Source of the DNA: Paramyrothecium sp. XJ0827
Taxonomy: Eukaryota; Ascomycota; Sordariomycetes; Hypocreales; Stachybotryaceae
NCBI GenBank assembly: GCA_020881915.1
Contig: JAJFPB010000002.1
Location: 5,839,001 to 5,903,000 of the forward strand
Direction: 5' to 3'
DNA length: 64,000 bases
Below the pieces are notes generated by a model. It saw only the letters and a program-made list of their open reading frames with translations. It ran no database searches and had not been told where the DNA came from. A program made the translations under genes and the position numbers. Of the stretch, positions 4,771 to 54,925 are shown piece after piece. Positions within the stretch are counted from its first letter, which is position 1, and each line of letters starts with the position of its first letter.

Positions 4771-7700
4771 TCAACACAATCGAAAGGCACTGCCCCGTAC
4801 GAGTTGTAACCTCTCCCCGGCTGCAGCAGCCAGGGTAATATTCTCGGCACCCGGCAATGCGCTCAACACGTCTGCACCCCTGAGTCTGCGGCTGCCCCTC
4901 GGGACAAGTGGCACTGAACTGGGATATAATGCTATATTCTCGACCAGAGCGAGAAAAGCTCGGGACTTGTAGTTTCTGTGAAAATTGATTGGAACAGGCT
5001 CGCTATCCTTTTGCTGACTGAAGTAGGCGAGAATAAAATCTTTGAGCGTGGTATAGTATTGCAATTTCTTCGAGGATCGTGCCCCAAAAGCCGAGGAGAA
5101 AGAAATGGCAATCTCCTGCTCCCCGCCTAAGCTAATCAACTCCATGAGAATGCGGACGCGCTGCGTCATCACGCTCCAGTCAATGTAGTACCCAAGTTCG
5201 GTGGCGTAGACCATGTACTCGATTACTTGGCCAATCATTAGCATCCATATCGACGCTTTAGACGTAGCACTCCGTCTTGCGCTGCCTGCGTTCTCTTGGA
5301 ATATCTCGATAGTTCTATTGGGCGAGTGGCCTGCGCATACTAGGCTGACAGCAAGGCTGACATCGGGATTAGGCCCACATGCAGACGAGAGAAGTATGTC
5401 GATCTGCTCGTCCTGCATAAGAGCGTTTTGCTTGCCAAGTCGGCTGAAGATGTAGGTTGCATACCCGAGGTATGCCATATAGTGGTCGAAGGAGCCCTTG
5501 TCGTTGACCCATCCTGGCTGTGTCGACAGAGAGTTGAATTGGACCCAAGCCAAAGATAGCGGTGGATATCTCGACCCGACGGCTTCTTTGAAGGCTTCAA
5601 GTAGGCGGAGAGATGTCGCAGAAGGGCGCCGTAAGAGCTCGCTTGTGGATGGGTTCTCTAAAAGTTGTGTAGACTCTTCGAATAGTTGCACGTCGATTGT
5701 GGAACCCTTGCTGATGGACGCCCTATTGTAGGAGGCGGTCTCGGCAATCCGAAGGCGCGTGTAGGTATGCACCCAGTTTAAACGAATAGCTTTGAGCCTC
5801 GTGCCCGACATCATATAATCTGCGGCAGTTCGATGAAAGAACCGAACACGCTGGTGCATTGCATTAGATACGGGTACCGCCTCGTCCAGAAACCGCCCAT
5901 CGCGGCTCAGACCAACCTCCAGAATGCCCTTGGTCAGGCTGCTGATCTGGCGCTTGACCTGTTCGAGGCGCTCCTCCAGATCCACCTGGGAATATGCCTT
6001 CACCTGGTGTGGTGAGGGAAACGACTCGTCTTCGAGCTCGGATACGTAGCTGAACGCCAGCGCCCCTAGAGGCTTGTCCGAAGGGCTCATGTTATTGTTG
6101 TTCAGGGCAACGAAAAACATCAGATCGGATAGGCGCCTATCAACTGGGTCAAGGTCGCCTAACAGGCGGTCGTAAAGGGCCTCGAGGTCCTTAGGCAGCA
6201 TCTCCAGCTTCTTTTTTATCAAAGTCTCCGAGTCGTAACGACTTGCGGAGCTCACTATGACGCGAGCCACAAGCCGAGCCCAGAGGAACACGCCTTCAGA
6301 TAGGGCAACTATACTCGTGACGAGACTCGCGTACGAGCTCGCGATTCGACTAAAGTTCCTGTCGTTCTCGAATGTTTGGCGACAAAATGTTAAAATGTCT
6401 AACTTGTTTAGGTCGTGTAGATAGAGACGAGTTTGCTCGGGAAACGTGCGCAGGAACTCCGTGTACGGTCTTGAACTGACGCAGCACTTGATGTTGCCCG
6501 TACTGGTCCATTTTTGTATGCTCTCAGCAAGCTCCCAATGGCTGATGCTGTCACCACCGAGCTCGTCTAACCCATCGATGAAGAAGCAGAACTTGAACCG
6601 TCGGTACTTGTTCTCGTAGGCTACAAGGAGGCGGAACGCCTCGGTGATGTTAGCCGGGCGAAACATTTCGGAGCTAAACACCGTGCCCTCTTCGCCGTAC
6701 TCCTCTTCCCGCACCAGGCTGTCCCACTGCTCCGGGAAGACCTTTGAGATTAGGCTTGGATAAACCTTGAGCACCTCGAAGAGGATGGACCGGTAGAGGC
6801 CTTCGAGCGAGCGCTGCATCGCATCGCCAGAGCTCCAGAAGTAAAAATGCGCCATAATGAGCCTTTTGCCGTTTGCCCAGCGGCCGAGCAACTTTCTGGT
6901 GGTCGGGTGACCATAGATGAGCTTCATGGCGGTCGATTTGCCAGACCCAGGCTTCCCAGACATGTGAAACACGCCGCTCTCGTCACGCAGCCACGCGGTC
7001 AGCTTTTGTGAGGCGGCCCGCCTTTCAGGTCCTTGTCCTAATCCGAGCGAGTCTCCATCCACCGATGCGTCCTGTTCCAGCAGCCACTCGTACGTCTTAC
7101 CGCGCGCGTCGTGGATCGCGTCCTCGCGATCGTACATGGTGTCGAAGTAGATATGCCGCAGGATCTTGTTTTCTCGCGGCACGCGAACCGCAAGGCATCG
7201 GAATTTTGTGAGCAAGTCGCGGGCCTCTCGAAGCGGAGCCTCCTGCTCGATGCTGTTGGAGGACTCTTGCCGGTGCAGTGACTCCGAGACAGACTCCAGG
7301 GTCTTGCGCAGCATCTTGATTTCCCGCACTCGTGAGGTGGAGAAGCGCTTAAATTCCTCCCTGAGAAAGTCCAGCTTGACGTTGATCAAGGATTGGTGGC
7401 CACTGGCGACAGGTCAGGAACTGTGCTGTCTTGGAGTTGATAATAGGCATTGTTCGACTCACAGTGTAATTGTATTCAGATGCAAGATGATCTCAGACCG
7501 GTAGTCGGCAATTCTATTCCTGAGGGCTTCAATCTCCTGCTTCTTGCACATACTGGCCCACTTGACTCTCAGGGCGTCCCATCGCGAGTGCTTCTCCGTC
7601 ACTCTCAGATTGATAAGAACTCCTAGGAGCTCGTCTGAGAGACTGATGCACTGTGCTGTGAGCCTCTTTAAGGCTCTTGCCCGTATGCTGTCTCCAAGGA

Positions 7701-20941: not shown

Positions 20942-23488
20942 CTAATCCAATACATTTAGACTGCGCTCTCGCCGCCATTTTGCAAGAACCCGTCTAGAAT
21001 GAACAGTTGTTGGATGATCTGACCGCAATATCGATTGCCGCCACTGTAAACATTGGTCCATGAGAGAAATGGCAGAGTCGCGGCGGCCAAGAGCGTGCCG
21101 CGTGACGGCAAGGGAATGCATTTTTTTTAAGGTAATAGGATGCTTTTCTCCTAGCACCTCTCGTCCCAGAGCCAATGCATTCATGTAAATATCCTCAGCC
21201 TCATTGTATCGACCTTGAAAATTATATAATAATGCGAGGTTGCCCATGACGCAAATCGTTTGAGGGTGCTTCTCTCCTAGTACCTCTCGTTGAAGGTTTA
21301 AAATATTAAGTCTCATGGTCTCGGCCTTATTATAGTAACCTCGGCTGAGGTATGATGATGCAAGTGATGCCATGCTGGCGATCGTCTTAGGGTGCTTCTC
21401 TCCTAGCACCTCTTGTCGAAGGTTTAAAATATTAACTCTCATGGTCGCGGCCTTATTATGGTAACCTTGCTTATGGTATGATGCGGCGAGCGATGCCATG
21501 CTGGCGATCGTCTCAGGGTGCTTCTCTCCTAGCACCTCTTGTCGAAGGTTTAAAATATTAACTCTCATGGTCGCGGCCTTATTATAGTAACCTTGCTTAT
21601 GGTATGATGTGGCGAGTGATGCCATGCTGGTGATCGTCTTAGGGTGCTTCTCTCCTAGCACCTCTTGTCGGAGGTTTAAGACTTCGATTTGCAAAGACTC
21701 GGCCTTGCTATAGTAACCTTGCTTATGGTATGATGTGGCGAGTGATGCCATGCTGGCGATTGTGTCGGGGTGCCTCTCTCCTAGTATCTCTCGTCGAAGA
21801 TTTAAGACATCGATTTGCAAAGACTCGGCCTTGCTATAGTAACCTTGCCGACTATATGTTGTTGCGAGGTCCGACATGCTGCTAATCGTATCGGGGTGCT
21901 TCTCTCCTAGCATCTTTTGACGTAGCCCTAATCCTCTCTTGATCACGGGTTCCATCTCTCTCCATCGTCCGCGGTCGGATAGGAAATCGAATACCCGGCT
22001 AAGAAGCTCCGCTACCTCGATCTGATTTTCACTTATAGCTGTCCACTCTCCTACCCCTACGGCATGTGTCAAGTACTTCTCACATTGTTCCCAGGTCTCA
22101 CGCTTAGAAATAGGGAAGATCTTGCACATTATCTGTATGGCGATTCTTGAGTAGTATGTATCGGCCTTGATGCTATGACAGCCGTTTTCATCGTTGACGT
22201 GTGCCGCGTCCTGCGCATTGATGATATCAGATCTCAACTGGTATTGTATAGCTTCCTGCACAAGCTTGTGCATCTCATAGCTCTGTTTGTCGTTTTTTGT
22301 ATCCATTATACCCAGAAAAGAGAATTCTTTAAGTCGCGTGATGGCCCGTGTTGCCTCAAGATAAACCGAATCTTCGTCCTGGCTTCTATCGTGGTCTTGC
22401 TCCTCTTGGATGGTTGCTGCTAACATCTCGAATGAAATATTTTGCGAATCAAAGTATGCAATTACGTTTAGCATCCTATATGCTGGTTGGCTCTCCTTCT
22501 GGATCTGCTCCATCGAAATCCTCCATGTCTCAAGTATACTATTAGAAACGAGAGGTCTTCTATGTCGATCTGTTTCTGTCTCTTTAAGGAGAGTCCACCG
22601 CTGCTTGCCTTTCCTAAGCATAGTTAAGTATTGCCTGATTGGTGTTGATGTCCGCCGCATGTAGGCTCCGGCTTGAAAGATAGCAAGCGGAAGGTGCTGA
22701 AGCTCTTCTATAAGCGCTGCGGTCTCGCATGTATCTTCGGGTGCATCTGCATTCCTTGCGATTTGTAGAAGCTCCGTCGACTCGTTCCGTGTCATCGGGC
22801 CGACCCGGATACCGCGTCGAGGGCCCACAAGCGTTCCGACAATGCGCTCGTCGCGGCTTGTCCATAAGATATTACCCGAAGGTGCGCGAGGAATAAAATC
22901 AGATAAGTTTGCTGTCTGAGTTGTTTCTCCCGCCTGTGGCACCCCAAATAGGGAAATATCATCGGCATTGTCGAGGATAAGCACCCATTTGTCTTGTGCC
23001 TCGATACAACGTCGTACCGCCCTAAGTAGATCTTCTTTATCGAGCTTCATATTTACCCCCAGAAGCATTGCGACGTCTTGGTAGTCGTGTACAAATGTGG
23101 CCTCGCTATCGCCGTGGACCCAGAAGACCGAGCAGCTAGGATCACGGCATCGTTGATATACATAATCGAGTGCGATCTGAGTTTTCCTGCTGGCATGAGC
23201 CAAATGCCAACTTTGGGACATATTTTCGGCAGCTTACCCTGAGCCTCCCAAGCCGTAGAGAGCGGCAGTGGAATGTTCTGATGCCGTTGGGGGCAGAAGC
23301 CTGTTGACGCTATCGACGATGTCTGGACGACGGACGACATCTTCGTTGCGGGGATACGGGATGGAGCGAATGGCGGCGCGGGCTGGTCGGTGAGGCAATG
23401 GTAGATGGTAGTGGACATCGCCTTGGTTGATTGTGGCATGGTCGCCGAAGTGGCTGTCGGAAACGTCACGTCGCTGCGGCGAGACCAT
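20942..23488 (-). CDS. NB-ARC/TPR NOD-like receptor with N-terminal amyloid-type motif
   Basis: Exons 23238-23488 and 20942-23186 (51-bp intron) encode 831 residues. Residues 12-29 carry a short motif, FGDHATINQGDV, matching the C-terminus of the divergent PNP protein. The NB-ARC NTPase starts almost at once: P-loop GLGGSGKTQIAL around residues 80-91 (the intron splits this loop), Walker B KWVLILDNADD, and LQHLPLAIFQAGAYM (GLPL-like). From about residue 470, eight 42-residue TPR_10/TPR_12-type repeats follow, seven containing LGE(K/R)HP, with central copies nearly identical. There is no separate N-terminal effector domain, so the motif is the only candidate output device. By analogy with NWD2/HET-S, ligand binding to the TPRs would oligomerise the receptor and let its motif template the partner. 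That is inference from architecture. Confidence 0.93.
21010..21970 (-). repeat. 126-bp tandem coding repeats (TPR array)
   Basis: Eight in-frame units of 126 bp encode the TPRs of the NB-ARC receptor. A CTTCTCTCCTAG-like anchor recurs at about 21148, 21273, 21399, 21525, 21651, 21777 and 21903. The units between about 21270 and 21780 are nearly identical in DNA as well as protein, pointing to recent unit duplication or gene conversion. The outermost units are diverged. Confidence 0.9.
23402..23455 (-). other. Amyloid-signalling-type motif, receptor copy
   Basis: Codons 12-29 of the NB-ARC/TPR receptor, core FGDHATINQGDV. It shares F-G, A, I-N-Q-G-D-V and the preceding V-S with the C-terminus of the neighbouring PNP protein. 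The A-x-I-x-x-G-D pattern resembles the HET-s/sigma family of beta-solenoid motifs; amyloid formation is inferred. Confidence 0.7.
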
Positions 23489-23776
23489 CTCGTGCCGTAC
23501 CGTTTGCTGCTTGAATCAAGTCAGTTGTCGTCACCGACTTTTGGTGTAGGTTGTAGATGTTGAGTGGCGGATCCTGGGAGCCTTGTAGAAAAGTGAGGCT
23601 GAGATTATCTGCTTTCCCCGCTTCCGTCTCGTTTCCCCCTTTTCTATTACCTTCTGGCGGCTCAAATCAGGCGGCCAATAAGCGACGCAGTTTGCCCATG
23701 TTTTTCCCAGCTTTCCTTTCCTTTGCTTTGTCTTGATCTGACCTCTCCATTTTCTTGGACCATCTTGATTTCAAAA
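23489..23776. promoter_or_regulatory. Shared divergent promoter of receptor and PNP gene
   Basis: Only 288 bp separate the two start codons. The plus-strand side is pyrimidine-rich (CT tracts from about 23600 to 23750), typical of fungal promoters. The head-to-head layout would allow joint regulation. No specific operator is recognised. Confidence 0.6.
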
Positions 23777-24955
23777 ATGGCTTCCCTGGAACCGCCTCCA
23801 GACCGTTCATACTTTCACGTCGCCATCATCTGTGCTTTGTCTCGCGAGGCTGACGCTGTCACCCTGCTCTTTGACAAGTTCTGGGATGAAGATTCCGATC
23901 CATTTGGCCGCGCAGATGGTGACACGAACATCTACATGACTGGTCGCATCGGTGACCATGACGTTGTTCTTGCCGTGCTTCCAGGCATGGGCACGACCGA
24001 CGCCGCAGCAGCAACGGCCAGCTTGCGCTCAAGCTACCCTCGCTTGAGGCTGGCCCTGCTTGTGGGTATCTGTGGTGGAATCCCAGACATCGACGGCTAT
24101 GACTGTTTTCTTGGCGACGTAGTCGTTAGTAAATCGATTGTTCGATATGATTACGGCAGGCAATACCCTGGCCAATTTGTGATCAAAAATGCCTTTGAAG
24201 ACAGCCTTGGCAGGCCAAATGCAGATATCCGAGGATGCATTGCCGTCTTTGAGACAGAGCTTGCAAGGGAAAGGCTGCAGGCGAAAGCGGCCAAGCACTT
24301 GCAGCACCTGCAGAAAGTAGCCGAGCAAAAGCGAAGGCGAGCAAACTACCAGAATCCCGGTTCCCTTCGAGACAAGCTATACTTGCCTGAATATGGTCAT
24401 CGGCATCAAAGGTCGTGTGATGTATGCCTCAGCGGTGCAGCCGACTTTTGTGAGTCAGCCTCTAAGGCGTCCTGCGAAGACCTCGGCTGCGACGCGAGCA
24501 AACTAGTTGCAAGGGAGAGTCGCGCTCAAGGCGGTGACCTTGGCCCAGAGATTTTCATCGGACGCGTCGGCTCCGGAAATGCTGTTATGAAATCTGGCCA
24601 AGACAGAGACCGTATCGCCGCCGCTCATGGACTCATCGCTTTTGAGATGGAAGGTGCTGGTACATGGGATCAAGTGCCAAGCATCGTCGTGAAAGGTATC
24701 TGCGATTATGCCGACAGCCACAAAAATAAGGGCTGGCAAGATTATGCGGCGGCGACTGCTGCATCAGTGGCCAAGGCCATCCTGGAAAGGTATCCCGCAA
24801 GCGAGCGTGGGCAGGCTTCACTTAACAACGGTGGTAAGACTGAAGGTGCCACGGGTACGGGGAAAGCCGCAAGCGGTAGGACAGTGTCACACAACTCGTT
24901 CGGAAGCGATGCTCGGATTAACCAAGGAGATGTTGGAGGTAACGTGACTTTCTGA
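23777..24955 (+). CDS. PNP_UDP-phosphorylase-like effector with C-terminal amyloid-type motif
   Basis: Single exon of 392 residues. The start at 23777 (AAAAATGGC) is preferred over an upstream in-frame codon. Residues about 10-345 form a nucleoside phosphorylase-like domain: HVAIICALSREADAV, LALLVGICGGIP, LGDVVVSKSIVRYDYG, AFEMEGAG and VKGICDYADSHKNKGWQDYAAATAA. A Cys-rich insertion (CDVC and neighbours) lies around residues 215-245. A Gly/Ser/Thr-rich linker leads to the last 19 residues, which repeat the receptor motif as FGSDARINQGDV. The enzymatic core hydrolyses or phosphorolyses nucleosides in related proteins; as an NLR partner it could deplete nucleosides or produce a signal. Placing the motif at the extreme C-terminus, opposite the N-terminal copy in the receptor, matches known HET-s-type pairs. 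Confidence 0.93.
   Translation: MASLEPPPDRSYFHVAIICALSREADAVTLLFDKFWDEDSDPFGRADGDTNIYMTGRIGDHDVVLAVLPGMGTTDAAAATASLRSSYPRLRLALLVGICGGIPDIDGYDCFLGDVVVSKSIVRYDYGRQYPGQFVIKNAFEDSLGRPNADIRGCIAVFETELARERLQAKAAKHLQHLQKVAEQKRRRANYQNPGSLRDKLYLPEYGHRHQRSCDVCLSGAADFCESASKASCEDLGCDASKLVARESRAQGGDLGPEIFIGRVGSGNAVMKSGQDRDRIAAAHGLIAFEMEGAGTWDQVPSIVVKGICDYADSHKNKGWQDYAAATAASVAKAILERYPASERGQASLNNGGKTEGATGTGKAASGRTVSHNSFGSDARINQGDVGGNVTF
24896..24952 (+). other. Amyloid-signalling-type motif, effector copy
   Basis: Last 19 codons of the PNP gene, core FGSDARINQGDV followed by GGNVTF. It lies behind a low-complexity linker, as expected for a prion-forming tail. It matches the receptor copy at 23402-23455. Confidence 0.7.
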
Positions 24956-31314: not shown

Positions 31315-34164
31315 TTAATCCACACACCACCTTTGATTCTTCGAAAGCGATACGACTGGCGAGGCAAGACTAAGCCAACTGTTGACAACATGATTCTTGA
31401 AAAGCGCCACGTCTCCGCTAGTAGCACGAAATTTCCAATCCCTGCGACGCTCTTCGCTCGCAGTGAGCCACCTTAGACCAGCAGGGTCGCGATTGTTTAG
31501 GATGGTTGCAGTTATGTAATTCCGCACCTGCGGGTCCGCAAGCATGATCGCTGTTATTGTTTTGATCGTTTTAAGGTCCTGCGGTGGGATAGCCCTCGAA
31601 AGGTCGAGCTGCATAAGGGGAAACGGCTTAATGTTGTGTTTCGCCATGATCTCGCATACCATCAAGCCTGCTGCGAACATCTTCTCGAGTGGAGCCTCTG
31701 AGCGTGCGATCTCGACATGATAGAGGGAAGTTACGTAGATTATGTCGTCGTCGAACTTCCGGATTGATACGAGCAAGGCGGACTTGGACCTCAGGTCGAT
31801 GTTCTGCATGTTTGTCTCTTCCGAGAAGAGGATAGCATAATCGCCTTCACGATCGAAGTCAACGGTCGTCTCATGTACTGGCTGGATGATTCGTACGTCA
31901 TACCACTTGGACGTGTCTTCCGAGATATCGTAGATGATACACGTAGATCGTTTGCCTAGTCCTCCGGTGCCCGATTGTCTCTCGTGCCTAGGATCGGTTT
32001 CTTTTTCGGTCCCAATGTTGGTCTCCCCTAGTACCAGAGGCACAATGGAATCAAAAATGAAGCCTTTCATGGAGACCATGAGCCCTTCCTTTTTTGGATC
32101 AACCGTGGCACGAGCAAACATGTCTAGCACGGGGATGCCCAATTTCCCCGTCCGAACGAAGGTGGACTGCGCCCATCTGTAACCCCTTTGCGATAATCTT
32201 GGCGCTCTGTTGAAGATCAGTGAGGGTGGTACAACCGGCCATTGCTTCCACATCGCCGCCATACGAAGAGAGGCACAAGAGGGCTCCTCTGTTGAAACAT
32301 CGAGGATTGGTTCAAGGTCCAGGCCCATTATATTGCAGATGCAAATTGCTTCGTCTGTGGCCCAACTCGTTGACCTTCCCCCCAAGCTAAAAATCATTGT
32401 GACTATGCGAGAAAGAACATCCAGGCCCCAAGAGTCGCATGTGACAATTTCCTTATGCGAGCGCTCGCGCAGCGCCCTCAGCCTTCCGAGCACGTTGTCT
32501 CGAAACATCCATTTGCTCACCATCCTGGTGGGTGATTCGAAAAACTCTTCTTCAAATTCCTTGTTCAAAGTTTCGAGGTTTATGGCCTTATCCTTGAATT
32601 GGAACCAGAGTTGTTTTGCGAGTCTTGCCTCTTGCAGTGTCCAAAGCCGTGTCATCCAGGTTGTGCGATAGATTTGCATCAGCAGCTCCAATTTGGACAG
32701 ACCCGTAGTAGAAAGTGAGGAGACATTCCGGTCCAGCACAAGCACGTGTGAAGCACGTTGATATGTCTGCCTCATCTTCATTATTGCTGCTCGTCGGGAT
32801 TCTGTCGGTTCCAGTGGACAACACAGAGTGTCCATCCAGAACGGCATTGGATTTTTCTTGACGGCAGCCTGTGAGGCTAGGTCGTTGACGTACTTTTGGA
32901 TTCGTTGCAACTGACACTTTGGTAACGAGTTCTTCCTTGGATTCCCAAGCCCATGAGACCAGACATGGGAAATCGCAACGTAATCAGTCTCGGAAGCAGC
33001 GTCCAGGACTTCGACCGAATATCCATCGGCACCGGCTTCCTGTGAAAGTATCGTTAAAGGAAAGCTATCCGGATCGCTTTGTAAGACCGCGGAGGCAATT
33101 CCAGGGTCCAGTTCCAGGTGGGAACAACTACTGTGACAACATTCATCGGGTGCATGTGCCACCTCGTATTCAGCTGGATTGAGCTGATAGGCAACACATA
33201 CATCCTCTGAACACTTGGTATGGTCTTCTAAGCTCTGATGTGATTTTAGGCTTGCTGCGAAATAATCAACGGCTAGGGTACGGCTGCCATCTCTCCAAAA
33301 CTGTGCAGCTGTTCGCGGACACCATCCGAGGTTATTTACAACCTCATGGTTATAATGCGTGAAATCGGCACCCCCTATCCATCTGCCGAGGGAGTATGCC
33401 CCAAGCATATCATAGGCCTGCGCTACTTCGCCTTTGAATACGACGTTCGCCAATGCATTTGCCAAAAATTCATGGAGGGTCGCAATGACGAAAACAGTCT
33501 TCGTATTGATCGCCTCACAGAGAAATCCTATGATCGCTTTGGATTTTCGTATGCACCCATGGGCCCGTTCGAACTGCGGCGATCTACCTTGCGCATTCAG
33601 CTTCGCCATAAGATTCTTACCACGTGGTACTGGCGTATCGTATTGCGTCTGAATGCCGTCCTTGTTCATGATCCTTGCCTCGTGATCCATCATGATACCG
33701 TATTCTGGCTCCGGAACACCACGGACATAGATAGATCCTTTGAAATGAGTCTGGATTGTGAACCACCTCTCCAAAAGAGCATCCATGGATTTCACCGTCA
33801 TCTTGAGAACAAATCGACCATCGTCGGTCACTGCGAGGTAGTTTGTGATGTCCAAGTAGCAGCCAGTAACCTCAGCCAGTGTACCAAAGAAGAGCCAAGC
33901 GATAGCCATGCCCTCGAGCTCATCTCTCGATTGTCGCATAAGCCATGCTTGAAACCCTGGGTGCGCCCAAGCCTTGTTGGAGTATGGGCCAAAGTCGTTC
34001 CAAAACTCTCCTCCTTCATAGCCATAACGCTTTGGGAAGCTGTTCCAGAACGTTCCATTGATATGCTCGTCCCAGCTCGCCTCAAACCAGTACGTCACAG
34101 GGTCGGGGAAGGTAATTTCAATCGGTGAAAGAACAGGTTCCTTGGGAACAGGGAGATATTCCAT
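31315..34164 (-). CDS. HET-domain protein (heterokaryon incompatibility)
   Basis: Single exon. Start taken at the ATG at 34164 (949 residues), because the frame upstream begins only with a GTG; an upstream exon cannot be excluded. Residues about 395-560 form the HET domain: TDYVAISHVWSHGLGNP, PFWMDTLCCP, and MRQTYQRASHVLVLDR. The approximately 390-residue N-terminal region has no recognised domain but contains a Cys/His-rich stretch (HAPDECCHSSCSH) just before HET. The 390-residue C-terminal half is family-typical filler. HET proteins trigger cell death after fusion of unlike hyphae. Reading frame intact over its whole length, in contrast to the HET gene at 53-55 kb. Confidence 0.9.
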   Translation of the reverse strand: MEYLPVPKEPVLSPIEITFPDPVTYWFEASWDEHINGTFWNSFPKRYGYEGGEFWNDFGPYSNKAWAHPGFQAWLMRQSRDELEGMAIAWLFFGTLAEVTGCYLDITNYLAVTDDGRFVLKMTVKSMDALLERWFTIQTHFKGSIYVRGVPEPEYGIMMDHEARIMNKDGIQTQYDTPVPRGKNLMAKLNAQGRSPQFERAHGCIRKSKAIIGFLCEAINTKTVFVIATLHEFLANALANVVFKGEVAQAYDMLGAYSLGRWIGGADFTHYNHEVVNNLGWCPRTAAQFWRDGSRTLAVDYFAASLKSHQSLEDHTKCSEDVCVAYQLNPAEYEVAHAPDECCHSSCSHLELDPGIASAVLQSDPDSFPLTILSQEAGADGYSVEVLDAASETDYVAISHVWSHGLGNPRKNSLPKCQLQRIQKYVNDLASQAAVKKNPMPFWMDTLCCPLEPTESRRAAIMKMRQTYQRASHVLVLDRNVSSLSTTGLSKLELLMQIYRTTWMTRLWTLQEARLAKQLWFQFKDKAINLETLNKEFEEEFFESPTRMVSKWMFRDNVLGRLRALRERSHKEIVTCDSWGLDVLSRIVTMIFSLGGRSTSWATDEAICICNIMGLDLEPILDVSTEEPSCASLRMAAMWKQWPVVPPSLIFNRAPRLSQRGYRWAQSTFVRTGKLGIPVLDMFARATVDPKKEGLMVSMKGFIFDSIVPLVLGETNIGTEKETDPRHERQSGTGGLGKRSTCIIYDISEDTSKWYDVRIIQPVHETTVDFDREGDYAILFSEETNMQNIDLRSKSALLVSIRKFDDDIIYVTSLYHVEIARSEAPLEKMFAAGLMVCEIMAKHNIKPFPLMQLDLSRAIPPQDLKTIKTITAIMLADPQVRNYITATILNNRDPAGLRWLTASEERRRDWKFRATSGDVALFKNHVVNSWLSLASPVVSLSKNQRWCVD

Positions 34165-40893: not shown

Positions 40894-41662
40894 TCACTTG
40901 GGTGCCCGAAGCGATACCGCCGTAGTGTATGACAAGATCCGAAGAACTTCATGAATCACGCCGAATGGTCTGTACGCCATCGCATTAGTCACATTCATAT
41001 GATCACCCTGGTGTGGACACTCGGCTCTGAAGAGACGGTCTGGTGCAGTGCCGCGTCGGTACGGAGGATGTTGGGCAAATCTCGCTTGTAATATCGAGGG
41101 TACCCAGCTGAGCTTCAGCTCATGAGTCGATCGTGAACTAGACACGGCTGTGCTGAGGAAAGTAACGGGAAGCTTCGGAACTCCCGTGCGCTTGATATGA
41201 CCATCTGCAACGATTTGGCCCATGTCGTGTTGGGTCGCCCTCGTCCCAACAACAGCATCTCCTAAAACAATATCTCCTAAGCAGATATCCGTCTTGCCAG
41301 GGTCCCCACCACCGATCCCTCCCATCAAACCATACGTTATCTATGGGAGTGACCACTTCAAGTTAGTGAAAACATTAGCCGCGTTGTTCATACCATACTG
41401 TGCCGCTAAGAGACAAGCAATCACGATGTTGTGTTGTAGGATGCTGCCCAAGACGTAATTGTTGATATCATCCGGTTGAGCAGGGAGCATCTGATGTTTC
41501 TTCTCTAGCACGGCCTGAGCTGCAGCCATCTCTACATGTAGAGCACGCACAGATCCATGCAATAGGATATTGATCATATGAAAGCATGATCAGCTCTTCC
41601 TCAATGTCGGGTGAAGGCCTACGCCTCTCTAACGGGCGAGAGGAGTCATCATGAGGAGCCAT
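40894..41662 (-). pseudogene. Relic of a PNP_UDP-phosphorylase-like gene
   Basis: The ancestral start is probably 41662 (MAPHDDSSRPLE). QYPIAWICA, the usual first strand of fungal PNP_UDP proteins, is followed by a frameshift near 41545. The frame then continues as LHVEMAAAQAVLEKKH and a NNAANV block. An in-frame TAG at 41341-41343 interrupts it just before the glycine-rich MGGIGGGDP core. The remainder reads DICLGDIVLGDAVVGTRATQHDMGQ and DRLFRAECPHQGDH, after which it diverges and stops at 40894. Thus the catalytic Ser/Glu region at the end of the fold is missing. TAG for CAG would fit a C-to-T transition in a CpA context (RIP-like), but a single site proves nothing. It is a second PNP_UDP gene in the window, now dead. 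Confidence 0.85.
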
Positions 41663-52958: not shown

Positions 52959-54925
52959 TTACTCCAAAATAATGAGAGAGGTTGGTAAAGTATCCCAAAA
53001 GAGATTGATCTGTCTAAACGTCACAGAACTTCTTTTGCCCCCCTGCTCCTCGCCTTCCATAGTACAGAGAAGCTTGACAAGACCAATCCTTGCATACCGC
53101 TGTCTCTCTCCCCTCTTGAGCACAAGCCCAAACGTTTGGTGAAGGTCTTTGTCCTGAACCATGAGAGGCAAAATAAAAACCTTGCTCGATCTGGTATGTA
53201 TGCATAATCTGGGACAAATTTGTGGACTTTCATGGTCATTTTATTGGCGAGCGCTGGATCTCCGGGCGCAGGTAACAAGCGTCGAATGCTAAAGCCATCT
53301 AGTTTTTGAAAAAGGACTTGGACGAGGGGAGCGCAGATCGTGATAGTGCTCCGACAGTATTGACCTAGATACGGGGAGCCAATCGCCTGTAAATCGGTGC
53401 CAACCACTGTCGACCGGTCCAATGGCCAGAGATTCGCTCTCATTTCCCCAAACCAAGCGACGGGCGATTTGACAGATACCCATGACCAGGATGGCGTAGA
53501 GTAGGCGGCAGACCTCTTGTGCTGGAGAAGCGAGAGTTGCCCGGCGGTTTCCCAGAGCATTTCCCACATGAGGGTGTCCGACCACAGTCCTGCCAAGAAC
53601 TTATCCGTTGGAGATTTTTCAGCAGCAAACCGCTGCGAAATTGCTGCTGGCGCGGGCAACCTGTCTTTTTCGAAGGTGAGATCCATCCGTGAGTAGTGAA
53701 GCACTTCGTTATGCCACTTTGCGTTTCTGGAATATTTTAGCACTTTTTCATAGGATAGGTGGTCTCTCTCTTCGTCATTGCTTCCACTCTCGCTTGTTCT
53801 GGTTGACCGGCACTGCGAGATGACTTCTTCCTGGCAGAAATGCAAGACACGGACCGAGAGTTTCATTTCTTGATAGACCCAAGCACGAGACAAGAGTGGT
53901 GCCGCATCGGGCGATCCTTCACTGGCTGCAAGTGACGGCATCTCCCCCCTGGCATATACTTGGCCGCCCGCTACTGGTATGCCACTGACATATTGCGTCT
54001 TCCTCTCCGAGTAACAACCCTAGCTGCCATTTTTCGATGTTGTCGCTGCAATGGTGATCAAGGCGTTCTCATAGATGTCGGCCATGATAATTGACTGCTC
54101 CATCCAATCCTCGGTGCTGTCTTGGATGATGCAGAGCGAATTAATCCAGAGAAAAGCGATATCCAGGCGTCGGCAGATGTAGATAGCATCCTTAAATGTC
54201 TTGTTTAGGTGCTTCCAAGGTATCTGCCTCTTAAAGGCATCAATTGAGGTGGACAGAGTCTTGATCTGCGTTTTGCCTGAGTCCCAGCAGTGACTCAAGC
54301 AAGCATAGTCTGAAGGTTGTACGCCCTCCCGAAGGACAACTCGATCCCCCCTTACATCCAAGATTCTTTTGGGCATGTATAGTTTCTTTTGCGAGGCAGA
54401 TTTGCAAGTCTCATGGTTTGCGAAGCAGTCTTTCACCCAGTAGCGAATCGTTCTTAACGTCTCTTCTGAAGAAGTTGAACTGGAGAGCAGGTTCCCGGGC
54501 GGAATGGTGGATATCCAATCCAGCTTCGACTCGAAATCTCGGTCGTCACCCGGTAAGAAGCGCTGCACCCAGTCAACGGAGGTGGCGGCGCTGTACGTTA
54601 TAGTGTTTCTTATGGTTCTCGACAATGAATGGACCTTGAAAAGCTCGTACTTCTGCGGAGTGATGTTATATCTTATGGATGTGGCCAAACCCGGGCCGGT
54701 AAGGGGGAGGAAGATGGCAAACCGAGAGGGCAGGTCTTCAGAAAAACCGATTGCAGCTTCTAAATCCTTGGAGAAGCATTCAAGAATGGTTCTTCTCAGG
54801 TCACAGCCAGCACAGCCTGATGAAGCGTCGCGCCGCAGTTGTTCTAATTTATGGCGACCTAATACCGGAATTTTTCGAGTCCTTTTCTGTTGTCGACACG
54901 AGGTGCATTTCTTGTTCAAGGCCAT
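52959..54925 (-). pseudogene. HET-domain gene broken by a stop codon and a frameshift
   Basis: The start at 54925 (MALNKKCTSC) leads into a CxxC/CxxC N-terminal segment. The HET domain follows: SDYACLSHCWDSGKTQ, RLDIAFLWINSLCIIQD, and ADIYENALITIAAT. Directly after TSKNGS, a TAG at 54020-54022 interrupts the frame. The same frame resumes with GCYSERK and LLSRAWVYQEMKLSVRVLHF, the conserved region that always follows. The tail is shifted: the family-like end LMVQDKDLHQTFGLVLKRG continues in another frame from about 53180 to 52959, so a one-base indel sits in the T-rich stretch near 53180. Without the two lesions the protein would be a standard 650-residue HET protein. TAG for CAG would fit a C-to-T transition. 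Confidence 0.88.

What the first reader, a model, noticed from the sequence alone, without database searches (positions are those of the whole stretch)
20942..24955. Head-to-head NLR and PNP_UDP effector sharing a matching amyloid-type motif
Seen: the NB-ARC/TPR receptor begins with a motif (codons 12-29) that shares 11 of 17 positions with the last residues of the divergently transcribed PNP_UDP protein, including V-S, F-G, A and the run I-N-Q-G-D-V. Known: in Podospora anserina NWD2/HET-S, and in the sigma systems of Nectria/Fusarium, receptor and effector are neighbours and carry matching short beta-solenoid motifs, N-terminal in the receptor and C-terminal in the effector. Inference: this is such a signalling pair with a nucleoside-phosphorylase-type effector instead of a HeLo pore-former. 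The exact motif variant may be undescribed.
Basis: partly seen in the sequence, partly recalled or inferred. Interest (0 to 1): 0.88.

Follow-up and report, generated by a model that had tools for sequence, protein, structure and literature searches.

The report
Fungal immune receptor paired with nucleotide-cutting enzyme
Two neighbouring fungal genes, a sensor protein and a nucleotide-cutting enzyme, carry the same short tag and probably work as a receptor and its cell-death or defence switch; this kind of pair is already known, but this tag may be a little-described version.

Summary
An NB-ARC/TPR receptor (23488-20942, minus, one intron) and a PNP_UDP enzyme (23777-24955, plus) lie head to head. 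Receptor residues 7-25 match enzyme residues 368-386 at 12 of 19 positions; 0 of 20,000 shuffles score as high. By pattern the motif recurs in 112 of 120 listed receptors and 49 of 121 listed enzymes. Profiles built from one side in other fungi find the opposite partner here. Three receptor/effector pairs of this genome, with different motifs, each score highest within the pair. In 14 related enzymes, one clade, the same tail position carries a PP-like amyloid motif: probably one module swap. Best reading: receptor oligomerisation templates the tail and switches on a nucleotide-destroying enzyme. Amyloid and ATP cleavage are inferred, not shown. Covariation in 4 linked pairs was not significant. 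PNP_UDP/NLR amyloid pairs are in print since 2012. The motif is not PUASM, sigma, PP or GDQN by pattern; it may equal published NLR12 or PF01048_015, whose logos I could not see.

The parts
20942..23488 (-). NB-ARC/TPR receptor (NLR), 831 aa; exon 1 23488-23238, exon 2 23186-20942
   Evidence: Pfam TPR_12, TPR_10, DUF7779, NB-ARC; APAF-1 by sequence E 1.3e-4
23187..23237 (-). 51-nt intron (GT...AG) interrupting the P-loop GLGGSG|KTQ
   Evidence: a continuous G-[LM]-G-G-x-G-K is present in 117 of 120 listed related proteins
23414..23470 (-). receptor-side motif, residues 7-25 (RDVSDSHFGDHATINQGDV)
   Evidence: coordinates checked
23489..23776 (.). 288-bp divergent intergenic region between the two start codons
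23777..24955 (+). PNP_UDP_1 effector enzyme, 392 aa, modelled as an MTAN-like nucleosidase fold
   Evidence: PF01048 E 3.1e-13; AlphaFold2 model mean pLDDT 81.9; Foldseek best hits futalosine hydrolase/MTAN, E about 1e-14
24878..24934 (+). effector-side motif, residues 368-386 (RTVSHNSFGSDARINQGDV), in a low-confidence, probably disordered tail
   Evidence: coordinates checked

Best explanation
The two genes form a two-component NLR signalling module. The receptor carries no recognisable effector domain; its TPR repeats sense a cue and its NB-ARC domain oligomerises (inferred from family knowledge). Clustered N-terminal motifs then adopt an ordered, most likely amyloid (beta-arch) fold and template the matching motif in the probably disordered tail of the PNP_UDP enzyme. 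That gathers and activates the enzyme, which by kinship to immune PNP effectors probably hydrolyses ATP or a related nucleotide and so kills or arrests the cell. Shown here: gene anatomy, the shared motif, its conservation on both sides, cross-detection, matching within pairs of one genome, and a PP-like motif at the same tail position in one related clade. Inferred: oligomerisation, amyloid templating, ATP as substrate, cell death.
For: Match beyond chance with 8 of 12 identical residues encoded by different codons. Motif by pattern in 112 of 120 listed NLR N-termini and 49 of 121 listed PNP C-termini, window enzyme included. Receptor-side profile from other species finds the window enzyme tail (E 6.6e-4) and the effector-side profile finds the window receptor ORF (E 9.1e-5; 1.3e-3 against the full-length receptor) among 8178 ORFs. 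Relatives keep both genes close: consecutive locus tags in 4 cases and tags two apart in 1. Within-pair scores 56, 64, 37 against 17-33 between the three own-genome pairs. PP-like tails in 14 related enzymes form one clade (99/99) beside motif-bearing rows, and 5 of 5 queries from 4 of these proteins have Pfam Ses_B, the PP model, among their hits, all below its cut-off. Tail of low model confidence, enzyme fold nucleosidase; PADLOC PN-superfamily effector E 5.3e-13. In print: PNP_UDP/NLR amyloid pairs and a prion-forming PUASM (PMC3321046, PMC9815663; passages and sections).
Against: No pair-specific covariation in 4 orthologous pairs (9 of 24 and 8 of 24 permutations as good). 57 of 121 PNP rows show neither this motif nor a PP-like tail (58 by the pattern, one of which has the motif by eye); mis-splicing before the tail exon is likely in many but unproven. 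No Pfam match for the motif: 0 of 7 family peptides and 0 of 2 window peptides, with HMMER's filters on. 18 of 112 pattern-matched NLRs have L/M/F instead of Q at position 18, while all 50 enzyme tails found with that position left free have Q. In one relative (Fusarium solani) listed enzyme and receptor lie on one contig but 78 tag numbers apart. The window enzyme also scores 33 against the HET-S-type receptor of this genome (25 of 3000 shuffles as high), so insulation is not absolute. No biochemical evidence of any kind.
Confidence: 0.72

Rival explanations
1. The motif is a short non-amyloid docking or co-oligomerisation element: receptor and enzyme bind through it, without a self-propagating cross-beta fold.
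For: Amyloid was not tested; Pfam amyloid-motif models do not match; the motif has polar residues (N/S at 8, mostly Q at 18) at two positions that are in general hydrophobic in HET-s-related motifs.
Against: The same tail position carries a PP-like amyloid-signalling motif in a clade of related enzymes; the composition (G, N/Q, F) and layout (receptor N-term, effector C-term) follow the amyloid pairs in PMC3321046 and PMC9815663.
Confidence: 0.15
2. The signalling pair is right, but the enzyme is not an ATP nucleosidase: it cleaves another nucleoside or nucleotide.
For: The nearest solved folds are MTA/SAH nucleosidases and futalosine hydrolase; the substrate cannot be read from the sequence.
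Against: PADLOC immune-effector models match; reviews state that an immune PNP effector of Detocs cleaves ATP (PMC11249213; PMC10197012; PMC12881547; passages only).
Confidence: 0.3
3. The shared motif is a relic of an ancestral PNP-NLR fusion gene that split, with a copied linker on both sides, and has no present role.
For: PNP_UDP also occurs as an N-terminal NLR domain (PMC12258605, passages), and in this genome a PNP ORF is directly followed by an NB-ARC-like ORF on the same strand (L033).
Against: Conserved at protein level across several genera on both sides although the two copies differ in codons; a relic would not be expected to be kept, nor replaced by another signalling motif.
Confidence: 0.03
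4. Chance or low-complexity similarity.
For: Short motif.
Against: 0 of 20,000 shuffles; family-wide conservation.
Confidence: 0.01

Closest known systems
UDP-phosphorylase/STAND pairs with sigma motif (Daskalov 2012, PMC3321046)
   Same: PNP_UDP enzyme and NLR encoded by neighbouring genes, with homology between the enzyme's C-terminus and the receptor's N-terminus (passages)
   Different: There the motif is sigma (GxGxQFN / GGTQN); neither pattern occurs in the window pair or in the listed relatives
PUASM (Wojciechowski 2022, PMC9815663)
   Same: PNP_UDP-associated amyloid motif shared with a neighbouring NLR; peptides fibrillise, the effector-side motif behaves as a prion in Podospora (passages)
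   Different: Pattern FxGxGxQxxGxGxF absent; PUASM receptors are NACHT or NACHT-WD40, here NB-ARC-TPR
NLR12 / 'HRAM3' motif with single-copy PNP_UDP effectors, and PF01048_015 (same paper)
   Same: PNP_UDP effector with a single motif copy; NLR12 is mostly Sordariomycetes, HRAM-type motifs lie at positions 5-9 of the receptor, with more receptors than effectors
   Different: Logos are in figures and supplements that I could not see; HRAM3 is described with H at position 3, here R. May well be the same motif
HET-S/NWD2 (HRAM1)
   Same: Layout; G at 19 and hydrophobic residues at 5, 10 and 16
   Different: N/S at 8, Q at 18, single effector copy, enzyme in place of HeLo; Pfam HET-s models give no match but hit this genome's own HET-S pair
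Detocs-type PNP ATP nucleosidases
   Same: PNP_UDP domain; immune-effector models match
   Different: Detocs is a 3-gene defensive two-component system (passage); here the partner is an NLR; substrate untested

Membership tests
NLR/effector amyloid-signalling pair (fungal ASM pair) | NLR without N-terminal effector domain, beginning with a short motif | tested here: met
   the first-exon ORF (93 aa, ending in the P-loop) matches 0 Pfam families at E 0.1
NLR/effector amyloid-signalling pair (fungal ASM pair) | Neighbouring gene encodes an effector with the same motif at its C-terminus | tested here: met
NLR/effector amyloid-signalling pair (fungal ASM pair) | Gene linkage conserved in other species | tested here: met
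   5 pairs with tags one or two apart and 3 more on one contig at unknown distance, read from the two lists of 120; 1 same-contig pair is 78 tags apart; orientation not visible
NLR/effector amyloid-signalling pair (fungal ASM pair) | Motifs more alike within a cluster than between clusters | tested here: inconclusive
   Yes between the three motif types of this genome; no among 4 orthologous pairs
NLR/effector amyloid-signalling pair (fungal ASM pair) | Peptides form cross-seeding amyloid | not testable with these tools
   needs ThT, EM, seeding
HRAM (HET-s-related motifs) | Invariant G at 19 | tested here: met
   G in 96% of 49 effector-side and 95% of 112 receptor-side matches; the pattern used allowed only G, S, N (and D in receptors) there, and the numbering is set so that this G is 19
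HRAM (HET-s-related motifs) | Hydrophobic residues at 5, 8, 10, 16, 18 | tested here: not met
   5, 10, 16 yes (partly fixed by the pattern); 8 is N/S; 18 is Q in most (HRAM4 is described with Q18)
HRAM (HET-s-related motifs) | Two motif copies in the effector | tested here: not met
   one match per enzyme in the window; HRAM-like NLR12 effectors are also single
HRAM (HET-s-related motifs) | Match to Pfam HET-s models PF11558/PF17108 | tested here: not met
   0 of 7 family peptides and 0 of 2 window peptides, filters on; own HET-S pair hits as positive control
PUASM | FxGxGxQxxGxGxF | tested here: not met
   absent from the window pair, from the first 100 residues of 120 listed NLRs and the last 75 of 121 PNP rows
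sigma | GxGxQFN / GGTQN repeats; PF17106 | tested here: not met
   genome search with PF17106 gave 1 weak hit, on another contig
PP | FxGx(x)NxGxQxxGxNxG; PF17046 | tested here: not met
   for the window pair; a PP-like tail is present in 14 related enzymes instead
NLR12 / PF01048_015 (PMC9815663) | Match to the published motif profile | not testable with these tools
PNP_UDP immune nucleosidase | PF01048 domain with nucleosidase fold | tested here: met
PNP_UDP immune nucleosidase | Cleavage of ATP | not testable with these tools
   needs enzyme assay

The most novel reading that the evidence does not exclude
The 'INQGD' motif is a distinct, undescribed amyloid-signalling family of Hypocreales and Colletotrichum that couples NB-ARC/TPR receptors to a PNP_UDP nucleosidase, and it is a plug-in module: in one enzyme clade (Beauveria, Metarhizium and kin) it was replaced once by a RHIM-related PP motif, re-wiring the same enzyme to another receptor class.
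Probability: 0.35. Interest if true: 0.62.

Novelty: new member of a known kind. Interest (0 to 1): 0.45.

Why it matters
If right, this is a clean two-gene test bed for asking whether one tail motif decides which NLR controls a nucleotide-destroying immune enzyme. The same genome holds three receptor/effector pairs with different motifs, so insulation between amyloid pathways can be measured. The probable swap to a PP-like motif offers a natural experiment on re-wiring. It also links fungal NLR signalling to the PNP effectors of bacterial defence.

Tried and rejected
Chance similarity: rejected. Sigma, PP, PUASM and GDQN: patterns absent from the window pair and the listed relatives. Canonical HET-s motif: Pfam models give no match to the motif but hit the genome's own HET-S pair. 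A PDB sequence search with the enzyme tail gave 0 hits. A tail-only protein search returned only its own query from one candidate, so it says nothing. Pair-specific covariation among 4 orthologous pairs: not significant. A search of the paper library for pieces of the motif found 4 papers, by their titles unrelated; logos in figures and supplements are not covered, so this is not proof that the motif is unpublished.
Full report
WHAT IS THERE. The window lies in a 51.8-Mb genome held in 15 contigs, G000:C8:5839001-5903000. It is fungal and, by the names of the closest proteins (Dactylonectria, Fusarium, Trichoderma), hypocrealean (inference). On the minus strand an open frame of 93 codons ending in GLGGSG (23515-23234) is followed by one of 763 codons (23233-20942). 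A 51-nt GT-AG intron, plus-strand 23187-23237, restores the P-loop GLGGSGKTQ and gives 831 aa from the ATG at 23488. Pfam finds NB-ARC (24.4 bits, cut-off 23.5), DUF7779 and several TPR models; the nearest solved sequence is APAF-1 (E 1.3e-4). On the plus strand 23777-24955 encodes 392 aa with PNP_UDP_1 (E 3.1e-13). The start codons are 288 bp apart.

THE SHARED MOTIF. None of 20,000 shuffle pairs reaches the score of 56 (maximum 43); the best 60-aa window of 413 other ORFs of the window scores 39. Of the 12 identical residues, 8 use different codons, so the likeness is kept at protein level and is not a recent DNA copy.

CONSERVATION ON BOTH SIDES. A search with the enzyme gave 2074 proteins at E 1e-20 or better among 8000 scored; 120 are listed. 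A search with the receptor's first 95 residues gave 205 at E 0.001 or better among 299 candidates; 120 are listed. With simple patterns the motif is found in 49 of 121 enzyme C-termini (window included) and 112 of 120 receptor N-termini. The 8 receptors that the pattern missed carry a variant by eye, P0163 behind an N-terminal extension. Of the other 72 enzymes, 14 carry another tail (below), 57 show neither, and P0116 has the motif by eye. Many of the 57 seem to read from the PNP domain into an intron, which I could not check on DNA. On both sides the motif reads R3-x-[IV]5-x2-[NS]8-x-F10-G11-[DN]12-x3-I16-[NH]17-Q18-G19-[DN]20-[VI]21; positions 5, 10, 16 and 18-20 are partly fixed by the search patterns, the others are free. 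N8 (98%) and D20 (96%) prevail in the enzymes; S or N at 8 and N or D at 20 in the receptors; 18 of 112 receptors have L, M or F at 18, while 50 of 50 enzyme tails found with that position free have Q.

CROSS-DETECTION. Profiles were built from relatives only (48 enzyme tails without the window's; 116 receptors, by a slightly wider pattern) and run on 8178 ORFs of the window and 40 loci (L001-L040, some overlapping the window). The receptor profile finds the window enzyme tail (E 6.6e-4); the enzyme profile finds the window receptor ORF (E 9.1e-5; 1.3e-3 for the full-length protein). Neither lists the genome's own HET-S pair at E 5.

LINKAGE. Read from names and contig lengths: consecutive tags F53441_5359/5360, ACHAPT_008618/008619, ACHAPA_003161/003160 (printed longest contigs differ) and QQS21_012306/012305; tags two apart ACHAPI_011356/011354; and equal contig lengths, distance unknown, in Fusarium flagelliforme (105 kb), Dactylonectria estremocensis (1.5 Mb) and F. 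avenaceum (4.7 Mb). In F. solani a listed enzyme and receptor are 78 tag numbers apart on one contig. Only 120 rows of each list are shown, so the counts are lower bounds. Orientation could not be seen.

SPECIFICITY WITHIN ONE GENOME. Two other pairs turned up. At C7:1.20 Mb a PNP enzyme and an NLR lie head to head with a different shared motif (YxGPVNGxN[IV]VS; L022). At C7:1.80 Mb a HeLo-type protein and a NACHT receptor carry the classic HET-S motif (L038/L039), recognised by Pfam in the HeLo-type protein above cut-off and in the receptor below it. Scores within pairs are 56, 64 and 37 (10 of 3000 shuffles reach the last); between pairs 17 to 33. The highest between-pair score, window enzyme against HET-S-type receptor (33; 25 of 3000 shuffles as high), is close to the 37 and hints at a remote HRAM kinship or imperfect insulation. 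A second receptor with the window's motif (C8:4.19 Mb) scores 51 against the window enzyme; I saw no PNP ORF in the 7 kb around it, and its TPR part has an in-frame stop.

AGAINST: COVARIATION. With the 4 pairs (window included) whose enzyme tail is readable, true pairing is not better than permuted pairing (9 of 24 and 8 of 24 permutations as good).

MODULE SWAP. In 14 of 121 enzymes the same tail position reads F-G-x(2,3)-[NS]-[SA]-G-[FI]-Q-A-G; the named ones include Beauveria, Metarhizium, Pochonia, Lecanicillium and Conoideocrella. Five queries from four of these proteins all list Pfam Ses_B, each below its cut-off (best 22.8 bits against 23.2; weakest E 0.15). PMC12261475 (section 12 read) says that this model is the PP motif, misnamed. 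The strict PP pattern does not match these tails, so I call them PP-like. In a tree of PNP domains (68 rows; rows with neither tail left out; midpoint root; own-genome rows on long branches) the PP-like rows form one clade (99/99), grouped with two Dactylonectria rows that have the window-type motif (96/88). I read this as one replacement of one signalling motif by another on the same enzyme. It is the best indirect evidence that the window motif does the same job as PP.

THE ENZYME. The AlphaFold2 model (42 rows, mean pLDDT 81.9) has a mostly confident core to about residue 340 and a tail with block means of 38-57. Foldseek's best matches are futalosine hydrolase and MTA/SAH nucleosidases (E about 1e-14, TM-score by target 0.7-0.8, by query about 0.45). 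Residues E24, E290 and E292 are at least 90% conserved and D310 is invariant among the 42 rows; from recalled knowledge of MTAN they fit catalytic positions, which I did not verify residue by residue. PADLOC models PDC-M60C (1.1e-19) and 'PN-superfamily' effector (5.3e-13) match. Reviews state that a PNP effector of bacterial defence cleaves ATP (PMC10197012, PMC11249213; passages only); the primary paper was not held.

WHAT IS KNOWN. PMC3321046 (passages) reported UDP-phosphorylase/STAND pairs with sigma-type extensions in Aspergillus and Magnaporthe. PMC9815663 (sections 19 and 24 and passages) added PUASM, the HRAM-like NLR12 with single-copy PNP_UDP effectors, and PF01048_015 in four pairs. 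PMC4518210 (parts 1-2 and passages) defines HRAM1-5. The window motif is not PUASM, sigma, PP or GDQN by pattern. It meets some HRAM criteria (hydrophobic 5, 10 and 16, G19, and Q18 as described for HRAM4) but fails others (polar 8, single copy, no Pfam match). By host group, position, effector and receptor excess it resembles NLR12, but HRAM3 is described with H at position 3. Identity with NLR12 or PF01048_015 stays open because their logos were out of reach. In the listings and passages that I saw from full-text searches for motif pieces and topics, no paper spells this motif out.

VERDICT. A real, conserved receptor/effector pair of a known kind, probably amyloid-signalled, with a nucleosidase-type effector. 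The novelty lies in the motif variant, if it is not NLR12, and in the probable swap to PP.

Noticed in passing
L022:4117-5948 (G000:C7 about 1.200-1.202 Mb): A second head-to-head PNP/NLR pair in the same genome with a different shared motif (YxGPVNGxN[IV]VS), score 64 within the pair; the receptor N-terminus matches no Pfam family.
   Followed up: partly
L038/L039 (G000:C7 about 1.804-1.806 Mb): A canonical HET-S-type pair: HeLo-type effector with the double HET-s motif (PF11558, PF17108 above cut-off) and a NACHT receptor with one weak match.
   Followed up: partly
L041:1207-3650 (G000:C8 about 4.189 Mb): A second NLR with the window's motif, without a visible PNP ORF in 7 kb and with an in-frame stop in its TPR part; possibly a receptor sharing the window's effector, or a decaying copy.
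   Followed up: partly
C-termini of P0046, P0057, P0073, P0076, P0085, P0087, P0097, P0102, P0106, P0108, P0111, P0114, P0117, P0120: Close relatives of the window enzyme carry a PP-like motif at the same tail position, as one clade.
   Followed up: yes
P0140, P0157, P0177, P0198, P0202, P0221 (Fusarium oxysporum f. sp. radicis-cucumerinum, contig of 309642 bases, tags AU210_016159 to 016216): Six receptors of this motif-bearing family within about 60 gene numbers: a receptor expansion, perhaps many receptors on few effectors.
   Followed up: no
window 31315-34161 (-), 54020-54922 (-), 4771-7311 (-): Two HET-domain genes and an NPHP3_N/DUF7791 protein in the same window: a stretch with several incompatibility-type genes.
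   Followed up: no
window 41212-41472 (-): A short PNP_UDP-like stretch with one stop (E 1.5e-4), probably a fragment.
   Followed up: no
L033:4153-8430 (G000:C12 about 2.058 Mb): A PNP ORF directly followed on the same strand by an NB-ARC-like ORF: possible in-cis PNP-NLR architecture.
   Followed up: no
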